Shown piece after piece: positions 823-19,731 of a DNA stretch of 23,575 nt. This DNA comes from Candidatus Cloacimonadota bacterium. Its GTDB lineage: Bacteria > Cloacimonadota > Cloacimonadia > Cloacimonadales > Cloacimonadaceae. The notes under the pieces are model-generated. The model was not told the DNA's origin. It saw nothing but the letters and a program-made list of their open reading frames with translations, and did no database searches. The stretch lies in assembly GCA_023228285.1 (NCBI GenBank), contig JALOBM010000034.1, positions 1-23,575 of the forward strand. Reading direction: 5' to 3'. The position numbers and the translations under genes were made by a program. Position 1 is the first letter of the stretch. Each line of letters opens with the position of its first letter.

Positions 823-3720
823 TTATGCTCCATCTAGTACAGTAAACCAACAACTATATGCAGGTGATGTTATGATGCCGTTGTTGTCGGTGGCGATTAT
901 TGAATAAGTGTGTATACCAGATGAACGTGTACCTATATCAAATGTGAAGTCCATACCACCTATACTTGTATTGACCGTAGGCCCTGTAGTGATGTCGATT
1001 AGAATGCCATCTACCCATAACTCAATAGCATATACACCATAATAATCGTGAACATTGCAAGTAATCAATAGTTCTTGCCCAGCGTATAATGTTGTCTGCG
1101 TTTGTCCTGCTGTCGTAAATTGAGCTGTTCTTTCTGACTCATTATATTGTGTTATGACAACGTTTCGTATTGTTGAATAAGTGCTAGCAGTCACCTTGCA
1201 ATCAGCATTCGAAACTGTCGTGACTGTTGTCATATTTCCATTGATTGCTGTAATGTAAATTCTGTAATATTGATAAGTTGTGCCGTTTTTAAATGTCAAA
1301 TAATTAGACCAACTATTAGTACCAGGAGCAGAAACATTGGTCCTTGTATCCAATGTCACCCAAACAGAATTATCGTTAGATCCTTGCAATACGAAATCTT
1401 TCGGAAAGCCAGCATTTGTGTCATAATTGTTTTCCGAGACTATGGAACCATTTACAACAGACATGCCACTGTAATTCTGTTGTTGTATTGCATATTTGTT
1501 TATGACCTTCGACGCCCCATAACCAAAATCATATGATATGAACCATGGAGCGATTGATGCTGAACTCATCCATCTATCAGATTCTCCAGTATTTGTCTGA
1601 TTGAATGCCTTCCATCCTGAATAGTATGTATCTCGATATTCTGAATAATATTCACTACTTGCAACAACGACACTTGGTGTTGGCAGTACGTCTGATGACA
1701 TTATGGTCGTGCAAAATGATGTGCTAGAATTGTCTGCACCATCTATTGATAAACAAACTAGTTTAAGTTCTGCTAATCTAGCAATTAAACCGCCGCCAGA
1801 AACTGCATTTATCACTAATTTATAATAGCGATATTCAGTACCATTAACAAATGTAAAGTATGGTGTCCAAGAATATTCACCAGGTGGCGATATACTGTTT
1901 CTTGTATCTAATAACGTCCAATCAGAAGCGTTGTTTGATCCATATAACTGGAAATCTGTCGGAAAGCCATCATCTATCGCCTCTTGTAATGCGTATTTAT
2001 TGACTACAACACCGCTGTTGAAATCATATTGCAGCCAATGTGTGGTAGCAGATCCACTAATCCAATAATCAGTTGTTTGGTCAAATGCTTTATATGCTGG
2101 GTTAGCAGATGTCACGTTTCTGCACCCAATTTGGCTTACCATATTATTGCCCATAACAGAAGCTTCACTACATCTAAATGATGTGCCATCCCAATTGCTC
2201 AAATAATAGGTATGACCAGCTTTTGTTACTGTGATTTTATCAATAAAATTATTGCTCGTATCTGCGGCATTGAGACATATGAACCGCGAACCATTCCAAT
2301 AACTTATGTAATTATCATGTGGTGAATAATAGTGCCCTACAGTAGACGACACAACAGTGGCACCATTACCAAGGGCGATCTGTGCTACTATATTCATAGT
2401 CAATGAATCGTAATTCATTGAACCATCTGATATGTTTATAGTATCGGCACCTGGTAGACCAGAATATCTGCATAGATGAGCGACCCAATATGCAAAAGCA
2501 TAACTTTTTGTCTGTGATGGTACTAACGTAAAATGTGATTGCTCTGCAGATATTACGGTCGCACCAGCACCACAAGATATAGCGGCAATTTCATTTAATG
2601 TCGTAGTATCATAATTCATCGCACCATCTGAAGTATTAATTAGCCATGTACCATTTAAACCAGAATTAACACATAAATTTGTAATATCACCAGCACTATA
2701 GTACCATTTTTCGACAACAGATGTCTCTTCGCTATCTGCACTTACCACATATGGCGAAGGAGCCGTATTCGACGTCATTTTCGCAGTGCACGCTGTAGTT
2801 GACGTATTATCTGCACCATCAATCGAAAGACAAACCATCTTTACGTCACCTATGATGGCGACTGGTGATGGAAATGTATCAAGAATAATAGTTGGCGGAA
2901 TAGTTATTGTTGAAATCGTTATACCAACAGCGTCTGTTGTTGTAACCGCTGGCTCTGCTACAGTAACTTCTGCTGGCATTTCACTAGTATCTGTCCCAGG
3001 TAGCGGCAACCCAGTACCTGCTGGAATGACGCCAGTTGCACCAGCTATCTTGTTAAATCGTATTGGTAATATTTCGCTGGCCGCAATCCTAGACTTTATA
3101 ATATCAAATGTACATGACTCATCATATGTCCCACTACGGCATCCAGGCTTATATTCGTGGACTGGTTCAATTGCATCTATAGCAATGAACACAAGACTAT
3201 CTCTGCTTGCAACTGCGTCAGTATATGACGCTTCCGTTAAATCATTAGTTGCCAAATTCCTCTTGTAAACGACATAATCGCTAAGCGGAAATACATTTTG
3301 TGTACTGGCTACATCTTTTATTATTGCGACAAGCGATGGGTTTACTAAATCTCTCTGAATCTTGATATCTGATATCACATATGATTTTGTTACTGTGTTA
3401 TCTACCAGATTTTTATTCTTCAAATAATTTAGCATTTGTGCTAAATCTTTATCATCTACAATACCATCGCCATTCACATCAACATATGGTTGATTTGATG
3501 GTCTGACCTTAGGCAATACGCCACTACCATTTTCTGCGATATAATTAACAATGGTGTTATAGTCATTTATATCTATGCTATCGTCGGCAAGCACATCAAA
3601 GCGATTACCGGGGTTCTGCCATTTAGAAACACCAAGTATGATGTTGCTTTGGCTAAAACTACTCGACAGTGATGTAACTATAATCGATTCAATATAATTC
3701 GTCAATCCAATTTGTGTCAT
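823..3720 (-). CDS. Large multidomain tail adhesin with dockerin-like and discoidin-like domains
   Basis: A 965-aa protein, probably an appendage or receptor-binding protein of the virion. Residues about 41-103 form a dockerin-type pair of calcium-loop helices: the second loop (DVNGDGIVDDKD, residues 81-92) has Asp/Asn at loop positions 1, 3, 5, 9 and 12; the first (residues 42-53) is a weaker version. Residues about 230-280 are a Pro/Thr-rich linker. A motif CLSIDGADN occurs at about 297-305 and again at 657-665. Two discoidin (F5/8 type C)-like domains lie at about 535-655 and 680-830; both carry the pattern NKYA-, FP-DF-LQGSND/LYGSNN, W--LDTR and Y-YY+. Residues about 340-470 contain two copies of a 60-residue repeat with SDGxMNYD. 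Residues 852-963 look like a bacterial Ig-type domain. The start is 2 nt after the preceding gene. Domain calls come from motif recognition only. Confidence 0.8.
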   Translation of the reverse strand: MTQIGLTNYIESIIVTSLSSSFSQSNIILGVSKWQNPGNRFDVLADDSIDINDYNTIVNYIAENGSGVLPKVRPSNQPYVDVNGDGIVDDKDLAQMLNYLKNKNLVDNTVTKSYVISDIKIQRDLVNPSLVAIIKDVASTQNVFPLSDYVVYKRNLATNDLTEASYTDAVASRDSLVFIAIDAIEPVHEYKPGCRSGTYDESCTFDIIKSRIAASEILPIRFNKIAGATGVIPAGTGLPLPGTDTSEMPAEVTVAEPAVTTTDAVGITISTITIPPTIILDTFPSPVAIIGDVKMVCLSIDGADNTSTTACTAKMTSNTAPSPYVVSADSEETSVVEKWYYSAGDITNLCVNSGLNGTWLINTSDGAMNYDTTTLNEIAAISCGAGATVISAEQSHFTLVPSQTKSYAFAYWVAHLCRYSGLPGADTINISDGSMNYDSLTMNIVAQIALGNGATVVSSTVGHYYSPHDNYISYWNGSRFICLNAADTSNNFIDKITVTKAGHTYYLSNWDGTSFRCSEASVMGNNMVSQIGCRNVTSANPAYKAFDQTTDYWISGSATTHWLQYDFNSGVVVNKYALQEAIDDGFPTDFQLYGSNNASDWTLLDTRNSISPPGEYSWTPYFTFVNGTEYRYYKLVINAVSGGGLIARLAELKLVCLSIDGADNSSTSFCTTIMSSDVLPTPSVVVASSEYYSEYRDTYYSGWKAFNQTNTGESDRWMSSASIAPWFISYDFGYGASKVINKYAIQQQNYSGMSVVNGSIVSENNYDTNAGFPKDFVLQGSNDNSVWVTLDTRTNVSAPGTNSWSNYLTFKNGTTYQYYRIYITAINGNMTTVTTVSNADCKVTASTYSTIRNVVITQYNESERTAQFTTAGQTQTTLYAGQELLITCNVHDYYGVYAIELWVDGILIDITTGPTVNTSIGGMDFTFDIGTRSSGIHTYSIIATDNNGIITSPAYSCWFTVLDGA

Positions 3721-3722
3721 AG

Positions 3723-4592
3723 TTATGATATTGTAAGGACGAATTTACTGCTGCATCGTGTGGTCCCATCTGGCAAGAGTGCAGTGACTCTATATTGATA
3801 GGTGCCTTTTAAAAATTTTGACGTATCAACCATATATCTGAAAACATATGGATTTGAACGATACGACCCCTGCCTCAGTCCGATAGTCATGGGTGCTTCG
3901 TCTACAATAACTTCGTTATTTTCTGTTGAAACTGATATTGTGCCAATTAATTGTGGTAATATCGGTGCAACTAAATTGAAATCATAATCATAGAGAGGCA
4001 ATGGCATAATGCCAATTTCTAATGGTCTAATTTCTGGTTGGTTAAACTTCTGATCAAGCGGTTCAAATCCAAGCCTAATTGCAGTTAAAGAATCGTCACC
4101 ATCCCATGAATCAGCATAGACCCAAAACCTGCCACATGTTTGTAATATATAACCACTAAATTCCGGATTGTCCAGATCTGGACAACCATCGGTCCCTAAA
4201 ACACACCCAGTTATTCCAGTTGACTCCAATTCACATGGATTTGTTGGCATATAGCTCCAAACATCAAAATAAACATCTGGAACCGATGCATCTGCCGGAA
4301 TCTCTAGTAATAGCTTATATTCACCAGGTACGATAGCCCCAATTTCACCTTCTGTTCCGCATAGCCCACATTCAGTGTCTGCTCTTATATATTCAATAGG
4401 AGATGGATAATTCGGATCACATGGATCTACTACTACAAATGAAGCTATTAAATTAGACGGTATAATCTGTGTTTTGTAAATATCGACCTTTCGAATTGCA
4501 TACGGTGCGGTAGCGACACCACCACGCATGAACCTCATGTCTAATTCGACTATGTTGCCACGTCTAGCAGATATTCGTTTATATGTAGCCAT
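3723..4592 (-). CDS. Beta-rich virion protein of unknown function (289 aa)
   Basis: A 289-aa protein beginning MATYKRISARRGNIVELDM. A very strong SD (GGAGGTGG) lies just upstream of the ATG. The first ~150 residues look like a beta-sandwich with several cysteines (around residues 58, 75, 78, 118, 127, 135 and 151) that may pair. The last ~100 residues, ending in a strand pattern such as GTYQYRVTALLPDG, look like an Ig-like fold. No signal peptide or membrane segment is visible. It lies between a gp26-like baseplate gene and the large adhesin gene and is almost fused to the latter (2-nt gap), so a role as a baseplate or adhesin-attachment protein is reasonable. I do not recognise a named family. 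Confidence 0.8.
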   Translation of the reverse strand: MATYKRISARRGNIVELDMRFMRGGVATAPYAIRKVDIYKTQIIPSNLIASFVVVDPCDPNYPSPIEYIRADTECGLCGTEGEIGAIVPGEYKLLLEIPADASVPDVYFDVWSYMPTNPCELESTGITGCVLGTDGCPDLDNPEFSGYILQTCGRFWVYADSWDGDDSLTAIRLGFEPLDQKFNQPEIRPLEIGIMPLPLYDYDFNLVAPILPQLIGTISVSTENNEVIVDEAPMTIGLRQGSYRSNPYVFRYMVDTSKFLKGTYQYRVTALLPDGTTRCSSKFVLTIS

Positions 4593-4831: not shown

Positions 4832-5851
4832 TCACATTGATCGTGGGACCTGTGGACGAAAAAAGGATTCAGTAATTGGCAACATAGCGCTATGCGTCTC
4901 ACCGCAATTAGCACATTGTATTTCGATCATCGTCTCTATACTTGGGGTATGCTCTTGCAACCATTCCCTGATTACTGCAAGATCTGTAGAATGCATTTTG
5001 CTTACGATATTTCTGATCTTGAATCTATCAGTAACGCCCATGATATCAACGATCACAGTCTCAATGTTCTGAGTTACGATATCATCAAGTGCTATTTCGT
5101 CGCGGTTATGATTCGCAGTTGCCGCTATACGGTCTCTTGGCTTTATTTTGGCCCTAGATGCACCACCAATAATACTTTGAGCTTTTTTGGCTCTTTGTAT
5201 ACCACTCGCATCGCGAACACGCAAGAATCTAATTGATGCCGATATTTCTCTTCCGGTTGTCTTGGTAAGATATGGCAAGCTGATTTTAAATGGTTCAGTC
5301 CCTAATGACTCGTCAGCCCATACTATCGTATTAACCAATTCATTTAAATCAACAGAATTGGTAGATGCTTGTTGGCACTGCTGGTTCGGACATGTTGTAA
5401 TGAATTCATATTCATTACCATGTGTGATGCCACGCAGATAATACAATAAATATATCTGATCACCAACAAGCATATCTTGAATATCAAATCCATCAGGAAA
5501 ACGACAGCATTCCTTGAGCATATAGTCTATTGATTGCCCAGTTTGTGCTAATCTTGCTGTTGCCAAGATTTTGTCGATTTTCGCAGACCACGCCTTAACT
5601 TGCACTACACCAGAAGTCCATCCATAGTACAATCCCTTACTTGGAAGTGTCGTGTCTTCCCATGGAATCAATTGTTCTGGTGAAGCTTTTGAAATTATAT
5701 CGACAACATCAATATCTGATGTCGCATTACTAACAAGCTTAGCAAGCTCGGATGTTGGTCTATCTTGTATTTTGTCTTGTGGTTTGACTGGTTGTACTGG
5801 CTTAGTATTACCGTCTGTCAAGCTCACTTCTTCAGTTTTATCGTCGAGCAT
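4832..5851 (-). CDS. T4 gp26-like baseplate hub protein
   Basis: A 339-aa protein. T4 gp26 (about 208 aa) is a baseplate hub component; this version is longer. Residues 1-60 are a charged, probably disordered leader. The family signature is the stretch around TTLPSKGLYYG (residues 67-77) followed by the region KIDKILATARL. Two cysteine pairs, C154/C159 and C313/C316 (CANCGE), look like the two halves of a zinc ribbon brought together in the fold; the first pair sits in TCPNQQC, the second near the C-terminus. The SD is AGAGGA close to the ATG. The gene follows the tail tube paralogs and precedes a small assembly-like gene, which fits a tail/baseplate operon. The family call is from the recognised motif and context; the zinc site is inferred. 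Confidence 0.8.
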   Translation of the reverse strand: MLDDKTEEVSLTDGNTKPVQPVKPQDKIQDRPTSELAKLVSNATSDIDVVDIISKASPEQLIPWEDTTLPSKGLYYGWTSGVVQVKAWSAKIDKILATARLAQTGQSIDYMLKECCRFPDGFDIQDMLVGDQIYLLYYLRGITHGNEYEFITTCPNQQCQQASTNSVDLNELVNTIVWADESLGTEPFKISLPYLTKTTGREISASIRFLRVRDASGIQRAKKAQSIIGGASRAKIKPRDRIAATANHNRDEIALDDIVTQNIETVIVDIMGVTDRFKIRNIVSKMHSTDLAVIREWLQEHTPSIETMIEIQCANCGETHSAMLPITESFFRPQVPRSM

Positions 5852-5923
5852 AAAATCCTCTCAATCTTGATTGCTATAGTGTATCGTCTAGACTATATAC
5901 CACCCAGTAGTGAGTACTAATAG

Positions 5924-6466
5924 TTATTGTGTCGATTCATCAAGCTCGGCCCAATCGTATGATATTGTTACTTCTATCACTTTTACATCAGTACTAGTAT
6001 ATGTCAAATCGCCTTCTTTTACAACGCTTGGCCAACTACCATGTAATATCCATGTTGACTTGGTAGTCCAGTCTAGATTATATACATATATTGTTGAATC
6101 TTTCTTATAATCTGTCGGGCTCGCTAAGCCGGTTTTACTTGACCATACTTTTTTACGCCAATTTTGTAATATCGTCGATACTTTCAACTCAGATCCAGAA
6201 CTACCACTTATTACCATATCGTAAAATGTTACTCTTATATCTTCCCAAGTCACCATTCCTGCATATTTATAGACCAATGATGATCCATCGACCGTTTCTT
6301 TTCCTATAGTAAAAGTCGGTAATGTAGCATCCTTGGCTAATATCTTAGATGTATTATCATCCTTATCTTCAAATAAATTGTGGATGTGCCATGTATAGCT
6401 ATAGACTGGCTTTACGCTAGATGCTGCATAACCTTCGCCAACTCCGCCAACTATAAAGCCAGGTAT
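5924..6466 (-). CDS. Tail tube paralog 2 (gp19-like) with apparent ATA start
   Basis: The reading frame runs from a TAG about 75 nt upstream to the TAA at 5924 and contains no ATG, GTG, TTG or CTG before the conserved N-terminus. Starting at the ATA at 6466 gives 180 aa beginning (M)PGFIVGGVGEG, which aligns with MPGFNICGTGNG of the major tube protein. Later landmarks also align: YAGMVTWEDIRVTFYD with FAGKQTWEPVSMKWYD, and GSWPSVVKEGDLTYTSTD with NAWPKEVNWGDLDYTATD. The SD GGAG at 6474-6477 lies in the 13-nt gap after the previous gene and is 7 nt from ATA. A conventional start at the in-frame TTG at 6277 would delete about 63 conserved residues. The protein probably forms a minor ring in the tail tube or baseplate end. 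Confidence 0.8.
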   Translation of the reverse strand: MPGFIVGGVGEGYAASSVKPVYSYTWHIHNLFEDKDDNTSKILAKDATLPTFTIGKETVDGSSLVYKYAGMVTWEDIRVTFYDMVISGSSGSELKVSTILQNWRKKVWSSKTGLASPTDYKKDSTIYVYNLDWTTKSTWILHGSWPSVVKEGDLTYTSTDVKVIEVTISYDWAELDESTQ

Positions 6467-6477
6467 GGTATGTCTCC
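6467..6477 (-). promoter_or_regulatory. Shine-Dalgarno deciding the ATA start of tube paralog 2
   Basis: On the minus strand the sequence reads TTGGAGACATACCATACCT. GGAG (6474-6477) is 7 nt upstream of the ATA at 6466-6464 and lies just after the stop codon of paralog 1 (6480-6482). The spacing is the same as that for the ACG start of paralog 1, which supports ATA as the real initiation site. Confidence 0.65.
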
Positions 6478-6479
6478 AA

Positions 6480-7016
6480 TCATTCTGAATTGTCTTCGCT
6501 GTCTTTGCTGATAAGCTCTTCTTTTGCCTTATCCATCTCTAATGTAAAAGTTATCTCACTAATTTTCGACGATGCATAATCTAACTCATCTGGTGTTACT
6601 TTAGATGGCCAACAGCCATACATTGTATATCTATATATTGCATTATCTTCTCCATCCAATAATTCTAATGTACATGTCTGCTTTATTAGGTTAATTTTTG
6701 ATGTATTGATATCTAATACATTCGTCGACCACCATTGGTATATCTTATAAGCTGCATCAGATGCACCAACAACATGATAGAATGATATATCAATTGGAGA
6801 CCATTTGTTCTTTCCTGGAAACCAAATTACATCCTGTTTTTGATGTACTGGCGTTTTATCGAATTCAATTTTTGGTCTACCAGCTTTATGTGCATAGATT
6901 AAAATGTCCTTTAATGGATCTAGAGTAGTAAACTTCCAACGATGCTGCCGTGCTAACTCGATGGTTGCACCTGGTTGATTCGATTGATTAGTCTGGCCAA
7001 TGTTAAATCCGGGCGT
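6480..7016 (-). CDS. Tail tube paralog 1 (gp19-like) with apparent ACG start
   Basis: A 178-aa frame that lacks any ATG, GTG, TTG or CTG upstream of its conserved N-terminus; the frame is closed by a TAG about 30 nt upstream of the ACG. Read from ACG at 7016 it begins (M)PGFNIGQTNQS, matching MPGFNICGTGNG of the major tube protein. Further matches are RQHRWKFTTL with RKHRWVFRTL, FPGKNKWSPIDISFY with FAGKQTWEPVSMKWY, and GCWPSKVTPDELDY with NAWPKEVNWGDLDY. The C-terminus has an extra charged tail (KAKEELISKDSEDNSE) that the major protein lacks. An SD GGGAG is 7 nt upstream. An out-of-frame ATG at 7030 would give only 25 codons. The long intact homologous frame shows that it is not a pseudogene by decay. 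It is probably a minor tube or baseplate-junction subunit. Confidence 0.82.
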   Translation of the reverse strand, partial: TPGFNIGQTNQSNQPGATIELARQHRWKFTTLDPLKDILIYAHKAGRPKIEFDKTPVHQKQDVIWFPGKNKWSPIDISFYHVVGASDAAYKIYQWWSTNVLDINTSKINLIKQTCTLELLDGEDNAIYRYTMYGCWPSKVTPDELDYASSKISEITFTLEMDKAKEELISKDSEDNSE

Positions 7017-7028
7017 GATATATCTCCC
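7017..7028 (-). promoter_or_regulatory. Shine-Dalgarno deciding the ACG start of tube paralog 1
   Basis: The minus strand reads GGGAGATATATCACGCCC. GGGAG (7024-7028) is 7 nt from the ACG at 7016-7014. An ATG overlaps the start of this SD (7030-7028) but is out of frame and has no SD of its own. Confidence 0.65.
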
Positions 7029-7065
7029 ATAAATGTTCTATATTTAAGTTTGATATAAATACAGA

Positions 7066-7104
7066 ATCAGCCAGTTATATACTATAATGATATAACTGGC
7101 TGAT
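7066..7104 (-). terminator. Perfect 15-bp hairpin after the major tail tube gene
   Basis: The arms 7066-7080 (atcagccagttatat) and 7090-7104 are exact reverse complements around a 9-nt loop. The hairpin starts 7 nt past the tail tube stop codon. On the minus strand it is followed by TCTGTATTT, a poor U-tract, and preceded by AAAAGG, so it may act as a leaky terminator, an mRNA 3'-end stabiliser, or both. It separates the highly expressed sheath/tube genes from the tube paralogs. No other long gene lies in this gap (7017-7111). Confidence 0.75.
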
Positions 7105-7111
7105 CCTTTTA

Positions 7112-7618
7112 TTAGCTCTTTATAGCGCGATCAAATCTCAACGTCGCTTCAATCGTCGAAATATCGGTCGCAGTATAATCTAGGTCTCCCCAATTGACCT
7201 CCTTGGGCCAAGCATTACACATGGTCCAAGTTTCTGTTGTATTACCAGCAGAACCAATCATCTCCAAGGTCGCTTGTTTCTTGTAGATTGACGGGGCGTA
7301 GACTGTTGCTGTTGGCAGGTCGCAGACAGTATTTAGCCAATCATAAATAGTAGCCGATACATCTGGGTCTTGCTCAACATCATACCACTTCATGCTAACC
7401 GGTTCCCAGGTCTGCTTACCAGCAAAGTAAGCGACTTCCTGATCGTGGTGCATTTCAGGCTCTGCAAATTTGAAATTTGGACGTGACGCAGCCTGCAGCA
7501 CAAGCAATGCGGCAGAACTAATGTCGCCAAGAGTCCTAAAGACCCAGCGATGCTTTCTACGTGTTTCCAAATTTGCGGCCGGACCATTACCAGTACCACA
7601 TATATTAAAACCAGGCAT
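7112..7618 (-). CDS. Major tail tube protein (T4 gp19-like)
   Basis: A 168-aa protein, close to the 163 aa of T4 gp19, that stacks in hexameric rings to form the inner tube through which DNA passes. It starts MPGFNICGTGNG, an N-terminus typical of this family, then has RKHRWVFRTLGD, a central FAGKQTWEPVSMKWYD and a C-terminal NAWPKEVNWGDLDYTATDISTIEATLRFD. The SD AGGAGG is 6 nt from the ATG, the strongest of the three tube genes. It follows the tail sheath gene, the same order as T4 18-19. Two diverged copies lie downstream behind a hairpin. Its G+C is higher than that of the paralogs, which fits high expression. Confidence 0.92.
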   Translation of the reverse strand: MPGFNICGTGNGPAANLETRRKHRWVFRTLGDISSAALLVLQAASRPNFKFAEPEMHHDQEVAYFAGKQTWEPVSMKWYDVEQDPDVSATIYDWLNTVCDLPTATVYAPSIYKKQATLEMIGSAGNTTETWTMCNAWPKEVNWGDLDYTATDISTIEATLRFDRAIKS

Positions 7619-7648
7619 TTGAAGCCTCCTTTTGATTGTCTTCGACTA

Positions 7649-10513
7649 TTAGGCTGTCACGACACCACCAGCCGCCAAGACTTCCTCAGAACTAAAGGAA
7701 GCCGATGACTGCATAACCACGAGGTTCAGTACGATGAACTCAATCGCACGAGTTGGTTTGATGAAAACCGATACCCACAATTGATTGAGATCTCTTCTTG
7801 CCGCAGTATTGTTGGTTGCATCACAAACAACATTGAAAGCATCTAAACCACGACGAGCTTGAACGTCTGCCAAGTACGGGTTAATAAGCGTCTTGACTTG
7901 TGCCCATGTTGTTGAATCATTTGGCTCAAAGATGAACGATCGAAGTGTTTCGATCAGATTCTTCTTAAGGTTGATCAGCAACATTCTGACATTAACTCTA
8001 TCCAAAGCCGTGTCAGCTCTCTGTAATGTGCGTTGGCCAAACACCACAATGCCGTCATTCGGGAACGACACCAATGGATTAACAGCATTGCCGCTACCAT
8101 ATAATAAGTCGCGCTCACCTTGACTTGGATTGTATTCGACAGCCAATGGCGTGGTTAAAACGCCACGATTTAAACCGGCAGGAGCCATCCACTGTTCTGC
8201 GACATTCGCAGTGTTTGCAAAAACTCCAGCGACCTGTCCAGACGGCGGAACCCAAATGTTCTGGGCACTGTATTGGTCGTATATTTCAAGCCAACCCCAG
8301 TACAAGGCACCATAGCTACTGTTAATGGCCGATGATAGATCGGAAAGTAACATGCCGTTATGCCAATCGACAACTTGCTGTGGCCTCAATCCAAATGGTG
8401 GATCAACGATGTACAACACATCACCACGGCTTTCGCACAATTGTAGTCCCTGGCCAATAACTGCACCAGATGTCATACCAGGTATCACCAGCAAGCTAAT
8501 GTCGTATGTTTCAGAATTCTGTATGCCATACATGCCGCTCGAACTCGCAGAGTTACCAATTATGGCGGCATCAAGCTCGCTAGAATATGCTGGATCGGTC
8601 GGGATACCATTCGCACCGCCGCTGAACGAATGCTTTGATAATTGTGCTGGTTGTCGTGCCTCGTAAGCATTCGAGCCAGTTGTCTCATCAACATCATTAT
8701 TCAAGAACGATGGGCGATCTTCCCAATTTACAAAATCGTTTCCGTTCGCCCCACCAATCGATGTACCAGGATTCAGGACGTTAGCGATATATCTGGCATC
8801 GTTCTTGTCGAAACTGATGTTTTGGATGCTATCGGCAGTAGCGCCATCTGAATCAGTGATAACAAGCTGATATCTTGCTGCAGAATTACCAGCAATTGTC
8901 GTTTGTAGCGACAATGTTAATGTGTAATCATCTAACCAAGTACCGGCACTAGTAGCCACAAACCATCCAACAATGCTGGAAAAGTATGCGGAATCTAACG
9001 CACATTGCGAACCGTCTGGATCTGTTTCGCAAGACAACGGAACAGATGGTGTGACCTCTCCAGTATCAGGCAATGAAATACGCGTATCGTAAAATCCTCG
9101 GTACGCTTTAGTGTAAGGAGAAAGTATTCCAATCTCTTCAGCAAACATTAATGTCTTAAGATTGGAATATGTCGCCTTCATGTACAATTGATCGAGCCGG
9201 TGGGTGTCAGCTGTCACTATGACAACATGATCAATTCCACCAGGTGCAGTCAACGCAAATGAAGTGAAGTATGTTTCTCCAGAATATGTCCCATTACCAT
9301 CAATAGCAGCAGCAATCGTGGTTGCTGAAAGATTGGTACCGGTTGGTAGTGTGAAAACGATATTGATCGTATCGCTTCTGTCTGCTGGTATCACATCAAG
9401 CGAAATGCGATTGCTTGATGTGTTGATGAAATATGGACCAGCATCGGAGCCATACAAGTAGCTTCGTGGTATGTCGTAAACGTACTGTTGAACGCCAACC
9501 TCAGAAGCGAACGCACAAGATCCAGTAAGCTGAATTCGATCGCCAGCATCTTTGGTGCGTAATTGCGGATAAACTGTGTCGGTGCCATCGTCAACTGTAG
9601 TGGCAACAGCAATGTAGTCGTCGGCGGCAATAAGCGCATTGATCGCATTAACTAAATCTTCAGCACTTGTGTATGATGCAGCCGACATAGTGTGCGTAGT
9701 GCCAACGCCTTCAACCTCTACAATAAACTCTCTATTGTATGGCTTTGCAATGAATGAGAACATATCGTTCACATCAAGACGGCCATCGGTCACGACTATA
9801 TTGCATGTGAGGCCGTCACCAATTTCAATGTTTTCGCTTGTTCCAGGTATTTTCTCAGACAAAGTACCACTAGCCATGATGGCACTATCTGACGCGCGGA
9901 AAATCTTGAATGTCGCACCTTCGAGTGCGTACCCATCATTCGATTGACCGGTGATGAAAACGGTGAAGTTTTCGTCTGAACACCCTATATAGTTGTCGCT
10001 GAGATCGGTCTCGCCAGAAAATTGTAGTGTTGCGTCAGTAGGTCCATCTGTGACCGAGACACTTACATCAGTAAATGTAATGTTCTCAATTCCAGCGTCA
10101 TGGAATGTGACTGGCGAGCTAGCCGTTACAGCACGCATTGTGATTTTGCCGTAATCGATACCTGTGAAGACTGGTATGCGATTCCAGCCATTCAATCGAT
10201 TTCCTGATGTATCGATGCACACTTCGCTGAGTGCTTCGTCTTGACCATCTTGACATTCAATACCAACACGTATCACATATGCCTGATTACTATTTTCCAA
10301 GTATGCGAGCACAGCATACATCAAATAGCTTTCAACAAATGGCTCACCGAATGTATCGATGGCCGATTGTGCTGTACTCACAAAAGTTGGAGTATTCATA
10401 GGACCTTTTTTGGCAGTACCGACAAATGCTGCCCGAAGCGGGCCCGCACCACCAGTGACTGCACTAAGGTCTATTTCCCGTGGGTAAACACCAGGGCTCA
10501 AATATGTGGCCAT
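7649..10513 (-). CDS. Contractile tail sheath protein (T4 gp18-like), enlarged
   Basis: A 954-aa protein that forms the contractile outer tail cylinder. The N-terminus MATYLSPGVYPREIDLSAV and the block to about residue 85 (VGTAKKGP, AVLAYLENSNQAYVIRVG) are classic for the tail sheath family. The last ~250 residues hold the conserved core and C-terminal arm: GVLTTPLAVEYNPSQGERD, INDGIVVFGQRTL-like segment, RMLLINLKKNLIETLRSFIFEPND, then a C-terminal strand domain with KPTRAIEFIVL. T4 gp18 is about 659 aa, so about 300 extra residues sit in the middle (roughly residues 90-650), rich in Thr, Ser and Asp, and probably form domains on the outer face of the tail. The SD GGAG is 8 nt from the ATG. 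The following gene is the tail tube. Confidence 0.95.
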   Translation of the reverse strand: MATYLSPGVYPREIDLSAVTGGAGPLRAAFVGTAKKGPMNTPTFVSTAQSAIDTFGEPFVESYLMYAVLAYLENSNQAYVIRVGIECQDGQDEALSEVCIDTSGNRLNGWNRIPVFTGIDYGKITMRAVTASSPVTFHDAGIENITFTDVSVSVTDGPTDATLQFSGETDLSDNYIGCSDENFTVFITGQSNDGYALEGATFKIFRASDSAIMASGTLSEKIPGTSENIEIGDGLTCNIVVTDGRLDVNDMFSFIAKPYNREFIVEVEGVGTTHTMSAASYTSAEDLVNAINALIAADDYIAVATTVDDGTDTVYPQLRTKDAGDRIQLTGSCAFASEVGVQQYVYDIPRSYLYGSDAGPYFINTSSNRISLDVIPADRSDTINIVFTLPTGTNLSATTIAAAIDGNGTYSGETYFTSFALTAPGGIDHVVIVTADTHRLDQLYMKATYSNLKTLMFAEEIGILSPYTKAYRGFYDTRISLPDTGEVTPSVPLSCETDPDGSQCALDSAYFSSIVGWFVATSAGTWLDDYTLTLSLQTTIAGNSAARYQLVITDSDGATADSIQNISFDKNDARYIANVLNPGTSIGGANGNDFVNWEDRPSFLNNDVDETTGSNAYEARQPAQLSKHSFSGGANGIPTDPAYSSELDAAIIGNSASSSGMYGIQNSETYDISLLVIPGMTSGAVIGQGLQLCESRGDVLYIVDPPFGLRPQQVVDWHNGMLLSDLSSAINSSYGALYWGWLEIYDQYSAQNIWVPPSGQVAGVFANTANVAEQWMAPAGLNRGVLTTPLAVEYNPSQGERDLLYGSGNAVNPLVSFPNDGIVVFGQRTLQRADTALDRVNVRMLLINLKKNLIETLRSFIFEPNDSTTWAQVKTLINPYLADVQARRGLDAFNVVCDATNNTAARRDLNQLWVSVFIKPTRAIEFIVLNLVVMQSSASFSSEEVLAAGGVVTA

Positions 10514-10988: not shown

Positions 10989-11840
10989 CTATGTCGGTTC
11001 GTAAAATGAACTTGTAGTATTACCGCGACTGACCGCCAGTATATCGTTTGTCGTCGCCTCTCTTATAGATGTAACATGACCAAGTATAGTTGGTACTATC
11101 AATTCTGGTAACGGTAGCCATGCCTCGGCTGTCATAGAAAATTCATATCGCGTTTTCGCCTTCTGATCGAATCCAGCTTCCTTTTCACTAGCATCAGCAG
11201 ATCCTTCATATCTGAGCTGAACACTACCTCGTAAATGCTGGTCACACATTACAAATTCTGCCAGCGGATTAAAACGTGGTAAAATCTGTTCGAGTGCATA
11301 ATCGGCCTCTCCCTTATATGATGCCCATACAGTAAGGGTATACTTCACTAAGAATGGTACTGGTCTCCTTATTAATGCTACACGATCCATTCTGTGGCTA
11401 GTATATCTCCTTGCCATAGCTAGTACTGGAGAGCTAAATTTTTGTGGATTGAATTCGTGGCTAATTCTACTAATAGAAGCCACAGGAAACTTAACTCTAC
11501 CATCCTTTAATTGATCTCTCCATATAAGAATGCTCTTATCACCGCCAGCTATCTTTATTCTCATAAATCGATATGAGTCTTTTGTCGGTATTCTTATCCC
11601 AGACCAATATGTTTTCATCGCCTCGTCGAGGGCGCGAAAACCAGGCATCAAAAATTCTTGAACATATTCTGGCTGCGTTCCTAGCGGCTCGCCCATAATT
11701 TTGCGGCCACCCTGAACATCACTACTCTGCGCAACACCGACTGGAATTCGCTCTATATATGGATTAAATTCTGGGCCAGGGACTGGGCGTGAAGTCCTTG
11801 TCTGCTCTAGAACATTCGGTGTAAATTCATGTATCGCCAT
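10989..11840 (-). CDS. T4 gp15-like tail terminator / sheath stabiliser
   Basis: A 283-aa protein; T4 gp15 is 272 aa and forms a hexamer capping the finished tail and joining it to the neck. The matching pattern is KYTLTVWASYKGEADYALEQILPRFNP (residues roughly 165-190; in T4, a similar hydrophobic strand followed by VEQILPYFQP) and later KTRYEFSMTAEAWLPLPELIV, which resembles the T4 strand ending in FEVNGWMYPP. The first 60 residues are Pro-rich and specific to this protein. The SD AGGTG is close to the ATG. Its place before sheath and tube genes and after the gp14-like gene is the T4 order. The call rests on pattern and synteny; no search was run. Confidence 0.68.
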   Translation of the reverse strand: MAIHEFTPNVLEQTRTSRPVPGPEFNPYIERIPVGVAQSSDVQGGRKIMGEPLGTQPEYVQEFLMPGFRALDEAMKTYWSGIRIPTKDSYRFMRIKIAGGDKSILIWRDQLKDGRVKFPVASISRISHEFNPQKFSSPVLAMARRYTSHRMDRVALIRRPVPFLVKYTLTVWASYKGEADYALEQILPRFNPLAEFVMCDQHLRGSVQLRYEGSADASEKEAGFDQKAKTRYEFSMTAEAWLPLPELIVPTILGHVTSIREATTNDILAVSRGNTTSSFYEPT

Positions 11841-16494: not shown

Positions 16495-16520
16495 ACCTTT
16501 AACCTTTCACATTATGTTTG

Positions 16521-16560
16521 GATACAGAAACAGCGGCTTTTTGGGCCGCTGTTTCGTATC
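16521..16560. terminator. Strong G+C-rich hairpin behind the 136-aa gene
   Basis: gaaacagcggc (16527-16537) pairs exactly with gccgctgtttc (16545-16555), extended outward by gatac/gtatc with one unpaired base at 16526; the loop is tttttgg. It lies between the highly G+C-rich 136-aa gene and the 99-aa gene on the minus strand, so it most likely ends or protects the 136-aa mRNA. The minus strand has no good U-tract after the stem, so 3'-end stabilisation is an equal possibility. Confidence 0.7.
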
Positions 16561-16581
16561 TTAAGTTCGCGAGAAACTTAA
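16561..16581. repeat. Second hairpin at the 3' end of the 136-aa gene
   Basis: ttaagtt (16561-16567) and aacttaa (16575-16581) are exact reverse complements around a 7-nt loop (cgcgaga). It directly precedes the stop of the 136-aa gene and directly adjoins the larger hairpin, so the gene has two stem-loops in a row behind it. Confidence 0.55.
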
Positions 16582-16585
16582 AACG

Positions 16586-16996
16586 TTAGGCATTAACTGG
16601 CGGAACATAAGTATCGTTCCGCAAATCGCCTTGGAGGTCTCGGGTGAGCGAAGCATGGACGTTCGCCAAGAACATGTCGCTTCCAATTTGGAAAGCGAAA
16701 TCGATGCCGGGCAGACCCTCTTGAGCCGCACCAAACGTCTTGATCTGGTAAAGACCGACGACGATTGGGAAACCACGACCTGCACCGAAACGAGCTTCGC
16801 CGCAGTAGGGGCTGAAATCTTGGACTGTGGTGTCTCTTGTCAAGACGCCAACCAAAACTTCCTCGCCAGGCACGCTCATGATGAGCGGGCGGAGCCGCTT
16901 GGTCAAAGCAGCAACGGCCTCGTGGCGGAGGGCCTTACGGTAGCTTCGCACATTACGATAGACAGAAATCGAGGTATTAGCTGGTTGAGCTGACAT
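16586..16996 (-). CDS. Highly expressed, G+C-rich virion protein of unknown family (136 aa)
   Basis: A 136-aa protein starting MSAQPANTSISVYRNVRSY. The reading frame is markedly richer in G+C (about 58% in a sampled line) than most of its neighbours (about 40-45%), and uses codons typical of strongly expressed genes. The SD AAGGAG is 7 nt from the ATG, behind a leader of about 150 nt. Two hairpins follow the gene, so it looks like its own transcript. The protein has an Arg-rich helix (RKALRHEAVAALTKRLRP), then strand-rich parts (EEVLVGVLTRDTTVQDF, GFPIVVGLYQIKTFG) and a C-terminal FAFQIGSDMFLANVHASLTRDL. Copy-number logic suggests a capsid decoration or other major virion protein. No family is recognised. 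Confidence 0.8.
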   Translation of the reverse strand: MSAQPANTSISVYRNVRSYRKALRHEAVAALTKRLRPLIMSVPGEEVLVGVLTRDTTVQDFSPYCGEARFGAGRGFPIVVGLYQIKTFGAAQEGLPGIDFAFQIGSDMFLANVHASLTRDLQGDLRNDTYVPPVNA

Positions 16997-17094
16997 ACCA
17001 AATCTCCTTACAGTTATTGTTTGATTGTTTTTATTATTTCTCTGCCCACATAATAATTTTGACGAAAATCGATAATTCTTATGTTACGACTACC

Positions 17095-17803: not shown

Positions 17804-18752
17804 ATTTAGCTCTTTCTAAAATCATTTTAAACTGTGCTAGCTGCGACCAATGGCTTAAGTAGTCTTTAGTCGCATTGGCTGCCATGATTTTCCATGCGGG
17901 TAAATTGACTCTTGTATTCAAATCACTCCAATTTTTCACTAGTATTGCATTATGACCATCCACTAGTGGCGGTAAATATGGCGATATTTGTTTCTTACCT
18001 ATCGTAACGCGATTGAATATGACCGCTTCTGTGAAACGTAGGCTTTTATCGCCGTTACCACGCAAATCAATGCAAGCATGATGAGATAACAAATGCTTTA
18101 TATAATCATGTGCTGAGGCATCAACTCTAAACGACAACTCTGCCCAGTCTGGCATCCCGATAATACCAACACGCTCACCATAGCCACCACGACCAAGAAA
18201 ACCAGCTATTTTATTCGCATCATATGGAAATGCATCTCTGATTGCTTGTATATCATCATCAAGATATGCATAATCTAATTTCATCTTAGCAAATAAATCA
18301 AAAACTTGCGTAGAAGTGCGATGTGCAACTGGTATCGTTTTATGGCCGCGACTTTTTAAAAGCTTAGCACTACAATTAACTGGCATATATAAATCACAGC
18401 GATCTTGCACTGGATTGCCATGTCTACCCTTCCATGTTTGTTTTCTCTCCCTAAACAATCTATCAGATGAACTAAGACAAACCTTGAATGCTGGTAGATG
18501 CTCAATGTTCTTCCAATTTTCGTCAAAAAAGAACGTATCGGATTTTGCGATATAGATATCAATATCGTTATAGTTATCTGATAACAAATGCTTTACACGA
18601 CTTAAGATACTGTGTTCTTTGGCTTGCCCTTTTTTAACTATAACTTTAACAGGCAAATTCATCCGATCTGCTATCTCTGCCAAATTAGCAAGCTGATAAG
18701 CACAACGTGGCAGCCTATTGTCACCTAACATTGTAAAATCGACTGCAATCAT
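17778..18752 (-). CDS. Putative glycosyltransferase, GT-B-like (324 aa)
   Basis: A 324-aa protein beginning MIAVDFTMLGDNRLPRCAYQLA, a start layout seen in GT-B type enzymes. The C-terminal half has IAGFLGRGGYGERVGII and then HACIDLRGNGDKSLRFTEAVIFNRVTI (residues about 226-251), resembling the sugar-nucleotide part of exostosin-like and related glycosyltransferases (Gly-Asp...Arg-x2-Glu-Ala...Phe). The start ATG shares ATGA with the stop of the upstream GT-B gene, so the two are coupled. Substrate and acceptor cannot be read; with the neighbouring transferases it probably modifies a virion or host glycan. The family is inferred from motif shape. Confidence 0.65.
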   Translation of the reverse strand: MIAVDFTMLGDNRLPRCAYQLANLAEIADRMNLPVKVIVKKGQAKEHSILSRVKHLLSDNYNDIDIYIAKSDTFFFDENWKNIEHLPAFKVCLSSSDRLFRERKQTWKGRHGNPVQDRCDLYMPVNCSAKLLKSRGHKTIPVAHRTSTQVFDLFAKMKLDYAYLDDDIQAIRDAFPYDANKIAGFLGRGGYGERVGIIGMPDWAELSFRVDASAHDYIKHLLSHHACIDLRGNGDKSLRFTEAVIFNRVTIGKKQISPYLPPLVDGHNAILVKNWSDLNTRVNLPAWKIMAANATKDYLSHWSQLAQFKMILERAKYGPYSLRV

Positions 18753-19729
18753 CTTGTGTTGAACCTCTCTGATGCTATCTCGGTGAGTAATTTAGTAGCT
18801 ATATCGTCAAATCCTAATACAAACAACAATGTCGCCATTCTATGATGATATGTGTGTGCCGAAAGCACATCTTTATGTTGCTTTCGTGCAATCTCTTTTA
18901 AAGCATTAGCATCAAGCCTTAGTAAATCCTTTATTTTAGCGTGATATCCGTTTGGAGTTTCTGCCCATATAGCACTTGTTGGTAAGTATCTAGATATATC
19001 AAATGCAGGATCGTGGACAGCAACAGCACCACTCAAAATGACTTTAAATACACGTTCTGGTAAATCGATACCAGACGTTATCGTATGTGGCTCACTAATG
19101 CACGGAGCTATTTTACAGTTTGCTAATAATATCGGTACTTCGTTATCGGCTATAATCCCATTACAAAGATTTTCGGGCCAAGTTCCCCATCCACATACTT
19201 TGTGTGATATTGTTCTATCACGCAGAACTGGTAATAAATAAGCATCAATGTCTTTCGCTTTATATGGCCATCTACCACCAACATAGCCAATGTCATATTT
19301 ATCATGTGTGCCGTTTGATGTTTTAAATATTGTAGCATCACCAGCTGTTGCTAATGGAACCCATGGCATACCATCTCTATCCCAAAAAGACCAATAATGG
19401 CGATCTGTTTCATGGCCATATCCAAAAACCGCATCTGGTCGTATTGAAGATACCCAATTGATGGCGTCTTGCGATTCATTAATATTTGGTTCAATTCTTT
19501 TTGGTCCATATGGGTTAACATGTAAAGCTATTTTACATCTTCTGTCTCTTGGAATGTCTTGCCGATGACCTGAACATCCTATGTAGAGATCTGGGTCAAA
19601 GCTGTACCACGAGCCCTTTTTACCGTCCCAACGCTCAGCTACACAACCAATGTCGCGTAAAGCATTAATCATACCCTGCGTTATAAATGTAAATGCGCCG
19701 CCTGGTGGATTACATAATAAGATTTTCAT
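18749..19729 (-). CDS. GT-B glycosyltransferase, CgeB-like (326 aa)
   Basis: A 326-aa protein. N-terminus MKILLCNPPGGAFTFITQGM is the nucleotide-fold start of a GT-B enzyme. Then WVPLATAGDATIF and DIGYVGGRWPYKAKDI (residues 146-161), the conserved centre of CgeB-like enzymes; KVCGWGTWPENLCNG; and the C-terminal signature ERVFKVILSGAVAVHD (225-240), in which the Glu, Phe-Lys and Gly-Ala are characteristic. It transfers a sugar from a nucleotide sugar to an unknown acceptor. It starts 2 nt after the 612-aa gene and overlaps the next gene by 4 nt, so it is part of a coupled glycosyltransferase operon. Confidence 0.82.
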   Translation of the reverse strand: MKILLCNPPGGAFTFITQGMINALRDIGCVAERWDGKKGSWYSFDPDLYIGCSGHRQDIPRDRRCKIALHVNPYGPKRIEPNINESQDAINWVSSIRPDAVFGYGHETDRHYWSFWDRDGMPWVPLATAGDATIFKTSNGTHDKYDIGYVGGRWPYKAKDIDAYLLPVLRDRTISHKVCGWGTWPENLCNGIIADNEVPILLANCKIAPCISEPHTITSGIDLPERVFKVILSGAVAVHDPAFDISRYLPTSAIWAETPNGYHAKIKDLLRLDANALKEIARKQHKDVLSAHTYHHRMATLLFVLGFDDIATKLLTEIASERFNTR

Positions 19730-19731
19730 GA

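What the first reader, a model, noticed from the sequence alone, without database searches (positions are those of the whole stretch)
6464..7028. Two tandem tail tube paralogs appear to start at ACG and ATA
Seen in the sequence: the two gp19-like copies (6480-7016 and 5924-6466) are intact and align with the major tube protein along their length, but at the site of its MPGF start they read ACG-Pro-Gly-Phe and ATA-Pro-Gly-Phe. No ATG, GTG, TTG or CTG lies in frame between the upstream stop (TAG in both cases) and that site. Each has an SD (GGGAG, GGAG) exactly 7 nt upstream. Each differs from ATG by one transition. Known: non-AUG starts such as AUU in infC exist but initiate weakly and depend on IF3; ACG and AUA are very rare. 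Inference: the phage keeps paralog output low by weak start codons, setting subunit ratios in the tail. Alternatives are two linked point mutations in one genome, an assembly or base-calling error, an RNA-level change, or a phage change to initiation. Two genes with the same departure at the homologous codon makes chance less likely.
Basis: partly seen in the sequence, partly recalled or inferred. Interest (0 to 1): 0.85.

Follow-up and report, generated by a model that had tools for sequence, protein, structure and literature searches.

The report
Phage tail-tube genes with non-AUG starts
Two neighbouring phage tail genes lack any normal start codon and most likely begin at the near-miss codons ACG and ATA; related phages repeatedly show weak starts of this kind in the same genes, probably a way of making few copies of minor tail parts.

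Summary
Two gp19-like tail-tube paralogs (t1 6480-7016, t2 5924-6466, minus strand) read ACG and ATA where the major tube gene has ATG. Neither has an in-frame ATG, GTG, TTG or CTG between the upstream stop and that site; each has GGAG 7 nt upstream. The stretch before any usual start (118 residues in t1, 62 in t2) is about as conserved as the rest, so it is translated.

It is not peculiar to one contig. In well-supported clades around the window, 14 of 21 t1 rows (six of them GTG) and 11 of 19 t2 rows lack ATG there; outside, 5 of 34 and 2 of 53. In IMG/VR DNA the codon is ATT in six distinct major tube genes. In a scan open to any codon ending in A, C or T behind GGAGG, all 6 tube genes found read ATT. 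Sheath genes keep ATG.

Best reading: genuine near-cognate start codons. With a strong t0-t1 hairpin they probably keep t1 and t2 scarce. Against a simple dosage rule: in relatives the AUU gene is the major tube gene itself. Non-AUG initiation is known; its repeated use here is a new variant. No reads or proteomics were available.

The parts
7112..7618 (-). t0, major tail tube gene (gp19-like), ATG start at 7618
   Evidence: Pfam PF06841 33.9 bits, PHROG 4542; 111 of the 120 listed relatives begin with M at the Pro-Gly-Phe site
7625..7631 (-). AAGGAGG Shine-Dalgarno of t0
   Evidence: read; strongest pairing energy of the 14 ATG t0 genes compared, -11.6
7063..7107 (-). hairpin between t0 and t1 (about 18-19 bp, loop 6)
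   Evidence: z -6.0 on the 95-nt gap; z -6.8 on 7120-7040; 16 of 18 folded t0-t1 gaps, this one included, have z of -3 or below
7024..7028 (-). GGGAG Shine-Dalgarno of t1, 7 nt from ACG
7028..7030 (-). out-of-frame ATG ahead of t1, 24-codon frame, no Shine-Dalgarno seen
   Evidence: read
6480..7016 (-). t1, tail tube paralog, inferred start ACG 7016-7014
   Evidence: PF06841 36.9 bits; relatives up to 77% identical; no standard in-frame start until 6659
6481..6483 (-). out-of-frame ATG overlapping the t1 stop, 10-codon frame
   Evidence: read
6474..6477 (-). GGAG Shine-Dalgarno of t2, 7 nt from ATA
5924..6466 (-). t2, tail tube paralog, inferred start ATA 6466-6464; public prediction starts at TTG 6277 (117 aa)
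   Evidence: PF06841 34.8 bits; profile of t2 relatives matches the T4 gp19 chain (E 0.0005); public record P0039 is the 117-aa truncation
7649..10513 (-). tail sheath gene (context), ATG start
   Evidence: PF04984/PF17482; ATG at the N-terminus in 13 of 13 non-edge homologs, this one included
4832..5851 (-). T4_baseplate-family gene (gp26-like, context), ATG start
   Evidence: PF12322 43.5 bits

Best explanation
ACG (7016-7014) and ATA (6466-6464) are real translation start codons of two intact tail-tube paralogs, reached through a well-placed Shine-Dalgarno sequence and read by initiator tRNA as fMet. Near-cognate starts have arisen repeatedly at this site in the tail-tube genes of this group of uncultivated contractile-tail phages. 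In the window's phage their likely effect is low output of t1 and t2, which are probably single-ring tube adaptors or terminators, beside abundant t0. A hairpin after t0 probably helps by cutting or stabilising the message. Shown by sequence: the intact conserved frames, the absence of other starts, the recurrence in relatives, the hairpin. Inferred: initiation itself, the drop in output, the single-ring role.
For: (1) No ATG/GTG/TTG/CTG in frame, while the residues before any usual start are about as conserved as the rest: t1 68-74% against 60-81%, t2 58-69% against 60-79%, nine chosen relatives each. (2) Recurrence: t1 clade 14 of 21 rows without ATG (6 GTG, 3 internal Leu, 1 Ile, 1 ACG, 3 late starts) against 5 of 34 outside; t2 clade 11 of 19 (8 late, 1 Leu, 1 Thr, 1 ATA) against 2 of 53 (Fisher 1e-4 and 2e-6, ignoring kinship). 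Leaving GTG and Leu aside, 5 of 21 and 10 of 19 have no usual start at the site. (3) DNA of relatives: ATT at t0 in L093, L097/L101/L114/L116, L112, L118, L119, L120, and at t1 in L095. L093 (to the contig edge), L112, L119, L120 and L095 t1 have no ATG/GTG/TTG upstream in frame. (4) A scan behind GGAGG, open to all 48 codons ending in A/C/T, found 23 stretches, of which 6 are tube genes and all 6 read ATT; the 17 others show eleven different codons. (5) Controls: sheath ATG in 13 of 13 non-edge homologs; gp26-like genes ATG within 40 codons in 23 of 24 (the other TTG); gene 3723-4592 ATG near its N-terminus in 14 of 16 (the other two GTG/TTG). (6) Shine-Dalgarno pairing of ATG genes: median -8.7 for t0 (13), -3.7 for t1 (14), -4.7 for t2 (19). 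(7) t0-t1 hairpin in 16 of 18 folded gaps. (8) In print: S. aureus AUU/AUA starts gave about 10% of AUG output in poor medium, up to 30% for one gene in rich medium (PMC13009471, passages); T4 tail has 138 gp19 and 6 each of gp48, gp54, gp3 (PMC3004832, passages).
Against: No reads, transcript or proteome. No DNA for the nearest relatives, so their 'late' starts and Leu/Ile/Thr letters are read from protein records, not codons. The relatives with ATT at t0 in DNA are 57-61% identical to the window's t0. AUU stands on the major tube gene there, where low output would not be expected. Most t1/t2 outside the clades use ATG, and 7 of 21 and 8 of 19 inside them do too. ACG and ATA themselves were seen at DNA level in the window alone. 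L115 and L118 have an in-frame ATG upstream, L097 and kin an in-frame TTG.
Confidence: 0.66

Rival explanations
1. Genuine near-cognate starts, but tolerated drift rather than regulation: with strong Shine-Dalgarno pairing and abundant late message, the start codon can wander among near-cognates with little cost.
For: Codons vary between close relatives (ATG, GTG, Leu, Ile, ACG) with many changes on the trees (11 changes for t1, 8 for t2; 13 for t0); ATT also on the major tube gene; non-ATG t1/t2 genes have stronger pairing than ATG ones (5 against 33, p 0.005).
Against: Not seen in the control genes: sheath ATG in 13 of 13, gp26-like and gene 3723 homologs with usual starts in 24 of 24 and 16 of 16; concentrated in particular clades; codons stay one step from ATG in 8 of 8.
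Confidence: 0.22
2. Sequencing, assembly or consensus error, or fresh inactivating mutations in one genome.
For: Each codon is a single transition from ATG; no reads available.
Confidence: 0.07
3. The ribosome starts at the out-of-frame upstream ATG and shifts by -1 into the gene frame, or a leader peptide couples re-initiation.
For: Upstream ATGs 14 and 17 nt before the sites lie in the same relative frame (window t1, t2); similar in L097 t0 (8 nt) and L095 t1 (5 nt) (read).
Against: No slippery heptamer and no Shine-Dalgarno for the two window ATGs seen by eye; L112, L119 and L120 have ATT with no ATG in the 40 nt shown; GGAG-to-codon spacing varies by 6, 7 and 8 nt (read), so no fixed frame links leader and gene; t1-t2 gaps occur in all three frames.
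Confidence: 0.04
4. The phage or its host has altered initiation (changed IF3 or initiator tRNA), so near-cognate starts are read well.
For: Several different near-cognates in one operon; AUU on the major tube gene in relatives.
Against: Other genes in the window use ATG/GTG; no tRNA gene in the window; the rest of the genome and the host are unknown.
Confidence: 0.06

Closest known systems
IF3-discriminated AUU/AUA starts of bacterial genes (infC, pcnB; S. aureus infC AUA, cvfC1 AUU, ccpN AUA; PMC13009471, passages)
   Same: Conserved genes with a near-cognate start, a strong Shine-Dalgarno sequence and correct spacing; lower output measured there, about 10% of AUG
   Different: Those are bacterial, several of them regulatory; here phage structural genes, recurrent and varied codons, ACG included; nothing measured
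Streptomyces sigR GTC start repressed by IF3 (PMC5472188, abstract)
   Same: Non-canonical start setting the ratio of two partner proteins from neighbouring genes
   Different: Two-substitution codon, single regulatory gene; IF3 dependence shown there, not here
T4 gene 26* internal AUU initiation (recalled from the literature, not found)
   Same: AUU initiation in a tail gene of a T4-like phage
   Different: Internal second product of one gene there; here the sole start of whole genes
T4 gp19 tail tube with gp48/gp54 and gp3 rings (PMC3004832, passages)
   Same: Tube fold and place beside sheath and baseplate genes; one tube protein in large excess over 6-copy rings
   Different: t1 and t2 are close to gp19 in size, and their ring role is inferred

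Membership tests
Phage_T4_gp19 tail tube family (PF06841) | Profile score above the curated cut-off | tested here: met
   t0 33.9, t1 36.9, t2 34.8 bits against 28.2; PHROG 4542 tail tube for all three
Phage_T4_gp19 tail tube family (PF06841) | Tube-protein fold | tested here: met
   Models of t1 and t2 of moderate confidence (pLDDT 69.8 and 68.6) match phage tube and contractile-system tube or cap chains, best E 7e-7 and 2e-6, TM about 0.5-0.6
Single-ring tube adaptor or terminator (gp48/gp54/gp3 type) | Six copies at one end of the tube | not testable with these tools
   Fold matches do not separate tube from adaptor or terminator
Near-cognate (IF3-discriminated) start genes | No standard in-frame start ahead of conserved coding sequence | tested here: met
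Near-cognate (IF3-discriminated) start genes | Shine-Dalgarno at proper spacing from the near-cognate codon | tested here: met
   GGAG 7 nt upstream in both
Near-cognate (IF3-discriminated) start genes | Non-canonical start conserved or recurrent in relatives | tested here: met
   Recurrent, not conserved as one codon; ACG and ATA themselves not seen at DNA level in a relative
Near-cognate (IF3-discriminated) start genes | Initiation there shown, lowered output, response to IF3 | not testable with these tools
   needs reporter, ribosome profiling or peptide data

The most novel reading that the evidence does not exclude
A lineage of contractile-tail phages uses the start codon itself as an evolvable dial on each tail-tube gene (AUG, GUG, UUG, AUU, AUA, ACG), traded against Shine-Dalgarno strength and a terminator-like hairpin. 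Several such genes carry AUU behind a shared leader (TTAGATTTGAYTGGAGG-like), possibly so that translation rises when IF3 is outnumbered by ribosomes late in infection.
Probability: 0.25. Interest if true: 0.85.

Novelty: new variant of a known kind. Interest (0 to 1): 0.62.

Why it matters
Near-cognate starts in bacteria are known, to my knowledge, from a handful of genes. Here they recur at one homologous site in phage structural genes, even in a major tube gene, which gives many natural replicates for studying start-codon strength. They also hide genes: t1 of this window has no entry of its own among the protein search hits and t2 is stored as a 117-residue stump, so counts of tail genes and of non-AUG starts made from gene callers are biased. 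The proposed dosage role can be tested directly with reporters and virion proteomics.

Tried and rejected
Rejected: programmed frameshift from t1 into t2 or from an upstream ATG (t1-t2 gaps in all frames; no common upstream ATG). Rejected: genome-wide loss of standard starts (control genes). Rejected: an internal standard start. Rejected as evidence: TATAAATA late-promoter matches in the window (46 found, 55 expected) and sigma-70-like sites (10 found, 17 expected).

Led nowhere: blastn against phages (no match); tblastn against phages (t1 103 records, best listed 27%; t2 1 record, 27%); two scans of GTDB contigs (no relative); own genome (none held); no DNA for the 60-77% relatives. The exact 17-base leader in IMG/VR gave 7 stretches, of which only L119 and the L093/L124 contig hold tube genes.

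Weak points of my counts: ATT loci L112, L115, L116, L118, L119 and L120 came from a pattern that demanded ATH, so they are no measure of frequency; the second scan was free in the codon but demanded GGAGG, excluded codons ending in G, and returned no tube gene that the first had not. Several of its 17 other stretches are near-copies of one another. L115 has an in-frame ATG overlapping its Shine-Dalgarno and L118 has one 13 codons upstream; L097 and kin have an in-frame TTG 6 codons upstream. Protein records sometimes write M for another start (P0039 does for TTG), so ATG counts are upper bounds. GTG is a usual start, and I count it as 'not ATG' only. The t1 tree leaves out P0033 and the t2 tree P0039; rows of low score, short rows and near-copies were dropped too, and L016 was left out of the energy tables. 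Sixteen tube-like frames without a Pro-Gly-Phe motif (in L002/L023, L004-L008 and L094) were not counted. Loci L024-L092 (69 partial, weak matches) were not examined for starts. For L093 only the first 140 nt of the gap were folded. Fisher and uniform-codon values ignore kinship.

Full report
What is there. The minus strand carries, in order, a tail sheath gene (7649-10513), the major tail tube gene t0 (7112-7618), two paralogs t1 (6480-7016) and t2 (5924-6466), and a T4_baseplate-family gene (4832-5851). Families come; a sheath-stabiliser gene lies upstream at 10989-11840. All three tube genes pass Pfam's gp19 cut-off. The stretch 4832-10513 has no blastn match in the phage collection, and no host genome is held.

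Check of the observation. Reading the strand, the stop-to-stop frames and a listing of in-frame starts confirms the finding in every detail: ACG at 7016-7014, ATA at 6466-6464, TAG upstream of both frames, no ATG, GTG, TTG or CTG before the site, and GGAG exactly 7 nt away in both. The first standard start inside t1 would leave 59 residues, inside t2 117. The other frames of the window that I judge to be genes have ATG or GTG starts, so this is not a general habit of the genome.

Are the frames translated from there? Yes, by conservation. The 118 residues of t1 ahead of any standard start are 68-74% identical to nine relatives, against 60-81% for the rest; the 62 residues of t2 are 58-69% identical, against 60-79%. 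A protein search with t1 returned 34 relatives of up to 77% identity but not t1 itself. The search with t2 returned the window's own protein only as a 117-residue stump that starts at the internal TTG (P0039). Gene callers miss these genes.

Relatives, protein records. Many records write start codons literally. At the Pro-Gly-Phe site, t0 relatives show M at the first position in 111 of the 120 listed (239 were found). Of 34 t1 relatives, 17 do so; another 2 have M internally, 6 have V at the start, 4 an internal L, 1 an internal I, and 4 have no such motif. Of 48 t2 relatives, 37 have M first, 1 an internal T (P0041), 1 starts with L, and 9 have no motif. On trees built without the start codon, the window's t1 lies in a well-supported clade of 21 rows with 14 not ATG (outside 5 of 34), and its t2 in one of 19 with 11 not ATG (outside 2 of 53) (Fisher 1e-4 and 2e-6, which ignore kinship). 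Six of the 14 are GTG, a usual start, and three more are internal Leu, which may be TTG or CTG; the rows without any usual start at the site are 5 of 21 for t1 and 10 of 19 for t2. Rows called 'late' begin inside the gene. On long contigs this means, I infer, that the caller found no ATG/GTG/TTG at the site, but I could not read those codons. Two contigs, matched only by their length (234376 and 12931), appear to lack a usual start in both t1 and t2.

Relatives, DNA. Among loci found by protein homology alone, 8 distinct tube genes have a codon other than ATG at the site: L093 t0 ATT and t1 TTG, L095 t0 GTG and t1 ATT, L097 t0 ATT and t1 GTG, and the window's ACG and ATA. All 8 are one substitution from ATG; 46 others read ATG. 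A scan for GGAG-spaced ATH codons found 16 stretches, of which nine are tube genes reading ATT, on loci L101, L112, L114, L115, L116, L118, L119, L120 and L124; three of these (L101, L114 = the L097 contig, L124 = the L093 contig) had been seen already. Because that pattern demanded ATH, I ran the last scan free in the codon apart from its last base (A, C or T), behind GGAGG. Of 23 stretches, six are tube genes and all six read ATT; the other 17 are not tube genes and show TTA, TCA, ATA, ATT, GCT, AGT, GCA, AAA, CTC, TAA or TTC. In L112, L119, L120, L095 t1 and L093 there is no in-frame ATG, GTG or TTG between the previous stop (or the contig edge, for L093) and the ATT. The ATT t0 proteins are 52-84% identical to one another and fall in separate parts of the t0 tree: seven rows, six changes, at least three forced by well-supported branches. 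Control genes keep usual starts: sheath ATG in 13 of 13 non-edge homologs, including L116 and L095 whose tube genes do not; gp26-like genes ATG within 40 codons in 23 of 24 and TTG in L017; gene 3723-4592 ATG near its N-terminus in 14 of 16, GTG/TTG in L108 and L109.

A shared leader. A TTAGATTTGAYTGGA-like sequence ends in the Shine-Dalgarno of ATT genes L093, L097 and kin, L112, L119 and L120, and recurs before the TTG and GTG starts of t1 in L093 and L097. In the loci held it was seen with non-AUG starts only, but the sample is small and partly pattern-selected. The window does not carry it. GGAG-to-codon spacing varies from 6 to 8 nt, so the leader is not a fixed N-terminal extension.

How it most likely works. 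Pairing with the anti-Shine-Dalgarno is strong before ATG-started t0 genes (median -8.7, 13 genes) and weak before ATG-started t1 (-3.7, 14) and t2 (-4.7, 19). The five non-ATG t1/t2 genes pair better than the 33 ATG ones (p 0.005). Between t0 and t1 lies a strong hairpin: z of -3 or below in 16 of 18 folded gaps, the exceptions being L093 and L118; a nineteenth gap (L105) is 5 nt. This is what one would expect if t0 is made in excess and t1 and t2 are held down, by a weak Shine-Dalgarno in some lineages and by a weak codon in others. T4 tails hold 138 gp19 beside 6 each of gp48, gp54 and gp3 (PMC3004832, passages), and S. aureus AUU and AUA starts gave about 10% of AUG output, up to 30% for one gene in rich medium (PMC13009471, passages); the orders of magnitude fit. 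Folds of t1 and t2 match tube, adaptor and terminator chains alike, so the single-ring role is inferred.

What does not fit. The same kind of weak codon stands on the major tube gene of several relatives, where scarcity makes no sense unless the message is very abundant or translation is timed. Start codons also change often between close relatives. Tolerated drift under strong Shine-Dalgarno pairing is therefore the main rival (0.22). Error (0.07), frameshift or leader coupling (0.04) and altered initiation (0.06) are less likely.

Known or new. Non-AUG initiation is established: infC and pcnB AUU (infC of E. coli recalled; the pcnB title seen in a reference list), S. aureus AUU/AUA (passages), sigR GTC with IF3 (PMC5472188, abstract), and T4 gene 26* AUU (recalled only; not found; a T4 review, PMC3014915, passages, did not show it). 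SPP1's annotation lists AUG for 90% of ORFs and otherwise UUG or GUG (PMC6316719, passages). Searches for non-AUG with start codon, phage and tail tube (none), AUU start codon with phage (3 papers, none on this by title) and ACG start codon with bacteriophage (3 papers, none on this by title), and the wider listings, showed no report of such starts in tail-tube genes; the library holds open-licence papers only and I saw listings, not texts. I file it as a new variant of a known kind.

Noticed in passing
L094:5402-5431: t1 of L094 has ATG-PGF at the site but an in-frame TAG after nine codons; the frame then stays open and conserved. Not read through.
   Followed up: no
L094:4981-5400: The t0-t1 gap of L094 holds an extra open frame that looks, by eye, like a cysteine-rich HNH-type homing endonuclease; L093 likewise has a 989-nt t0-t1 gap against 58-138 nt in the other gaps longer than 5 nt.
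   Followed up: no
L093:17-31, L097:4580-4594, L119:2252-2266 and others: A TTAGATTTGAYTGGA-like leader is shared before non-AUG tube starts of phages (L093, L097, L112, L119, L120) whose t0 proteins are 52-84% identical.
   Followed up: partly
window 7063-7107: Strong hairpin after the major tube gene; a hairpin of different sequence sits at the same place in most relatives.
   Followed up: yes
window 16501-17000: Local GC of 52% against about 34-49% in the window's other 500-base steps, over an ORF (16586-16996) with no Pfam or PHROG match at 0.01.
   Followed up: no
window 18749-21570: Two glycosyltransferase-like genes upstream of the neck and tail genes (18749-19729 and 19732-21570).
   Followed up: no
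window 823-3720: Large protein with F5/8 type C and dockerin type I domains, a combination I find unusual for a tail gene.
   Followed up: no
P0039: The public record of t2 is a truncated 117-aa prediction with three member sequences in its cluster, so other samples may carry the same missing start.
   Followed up: no
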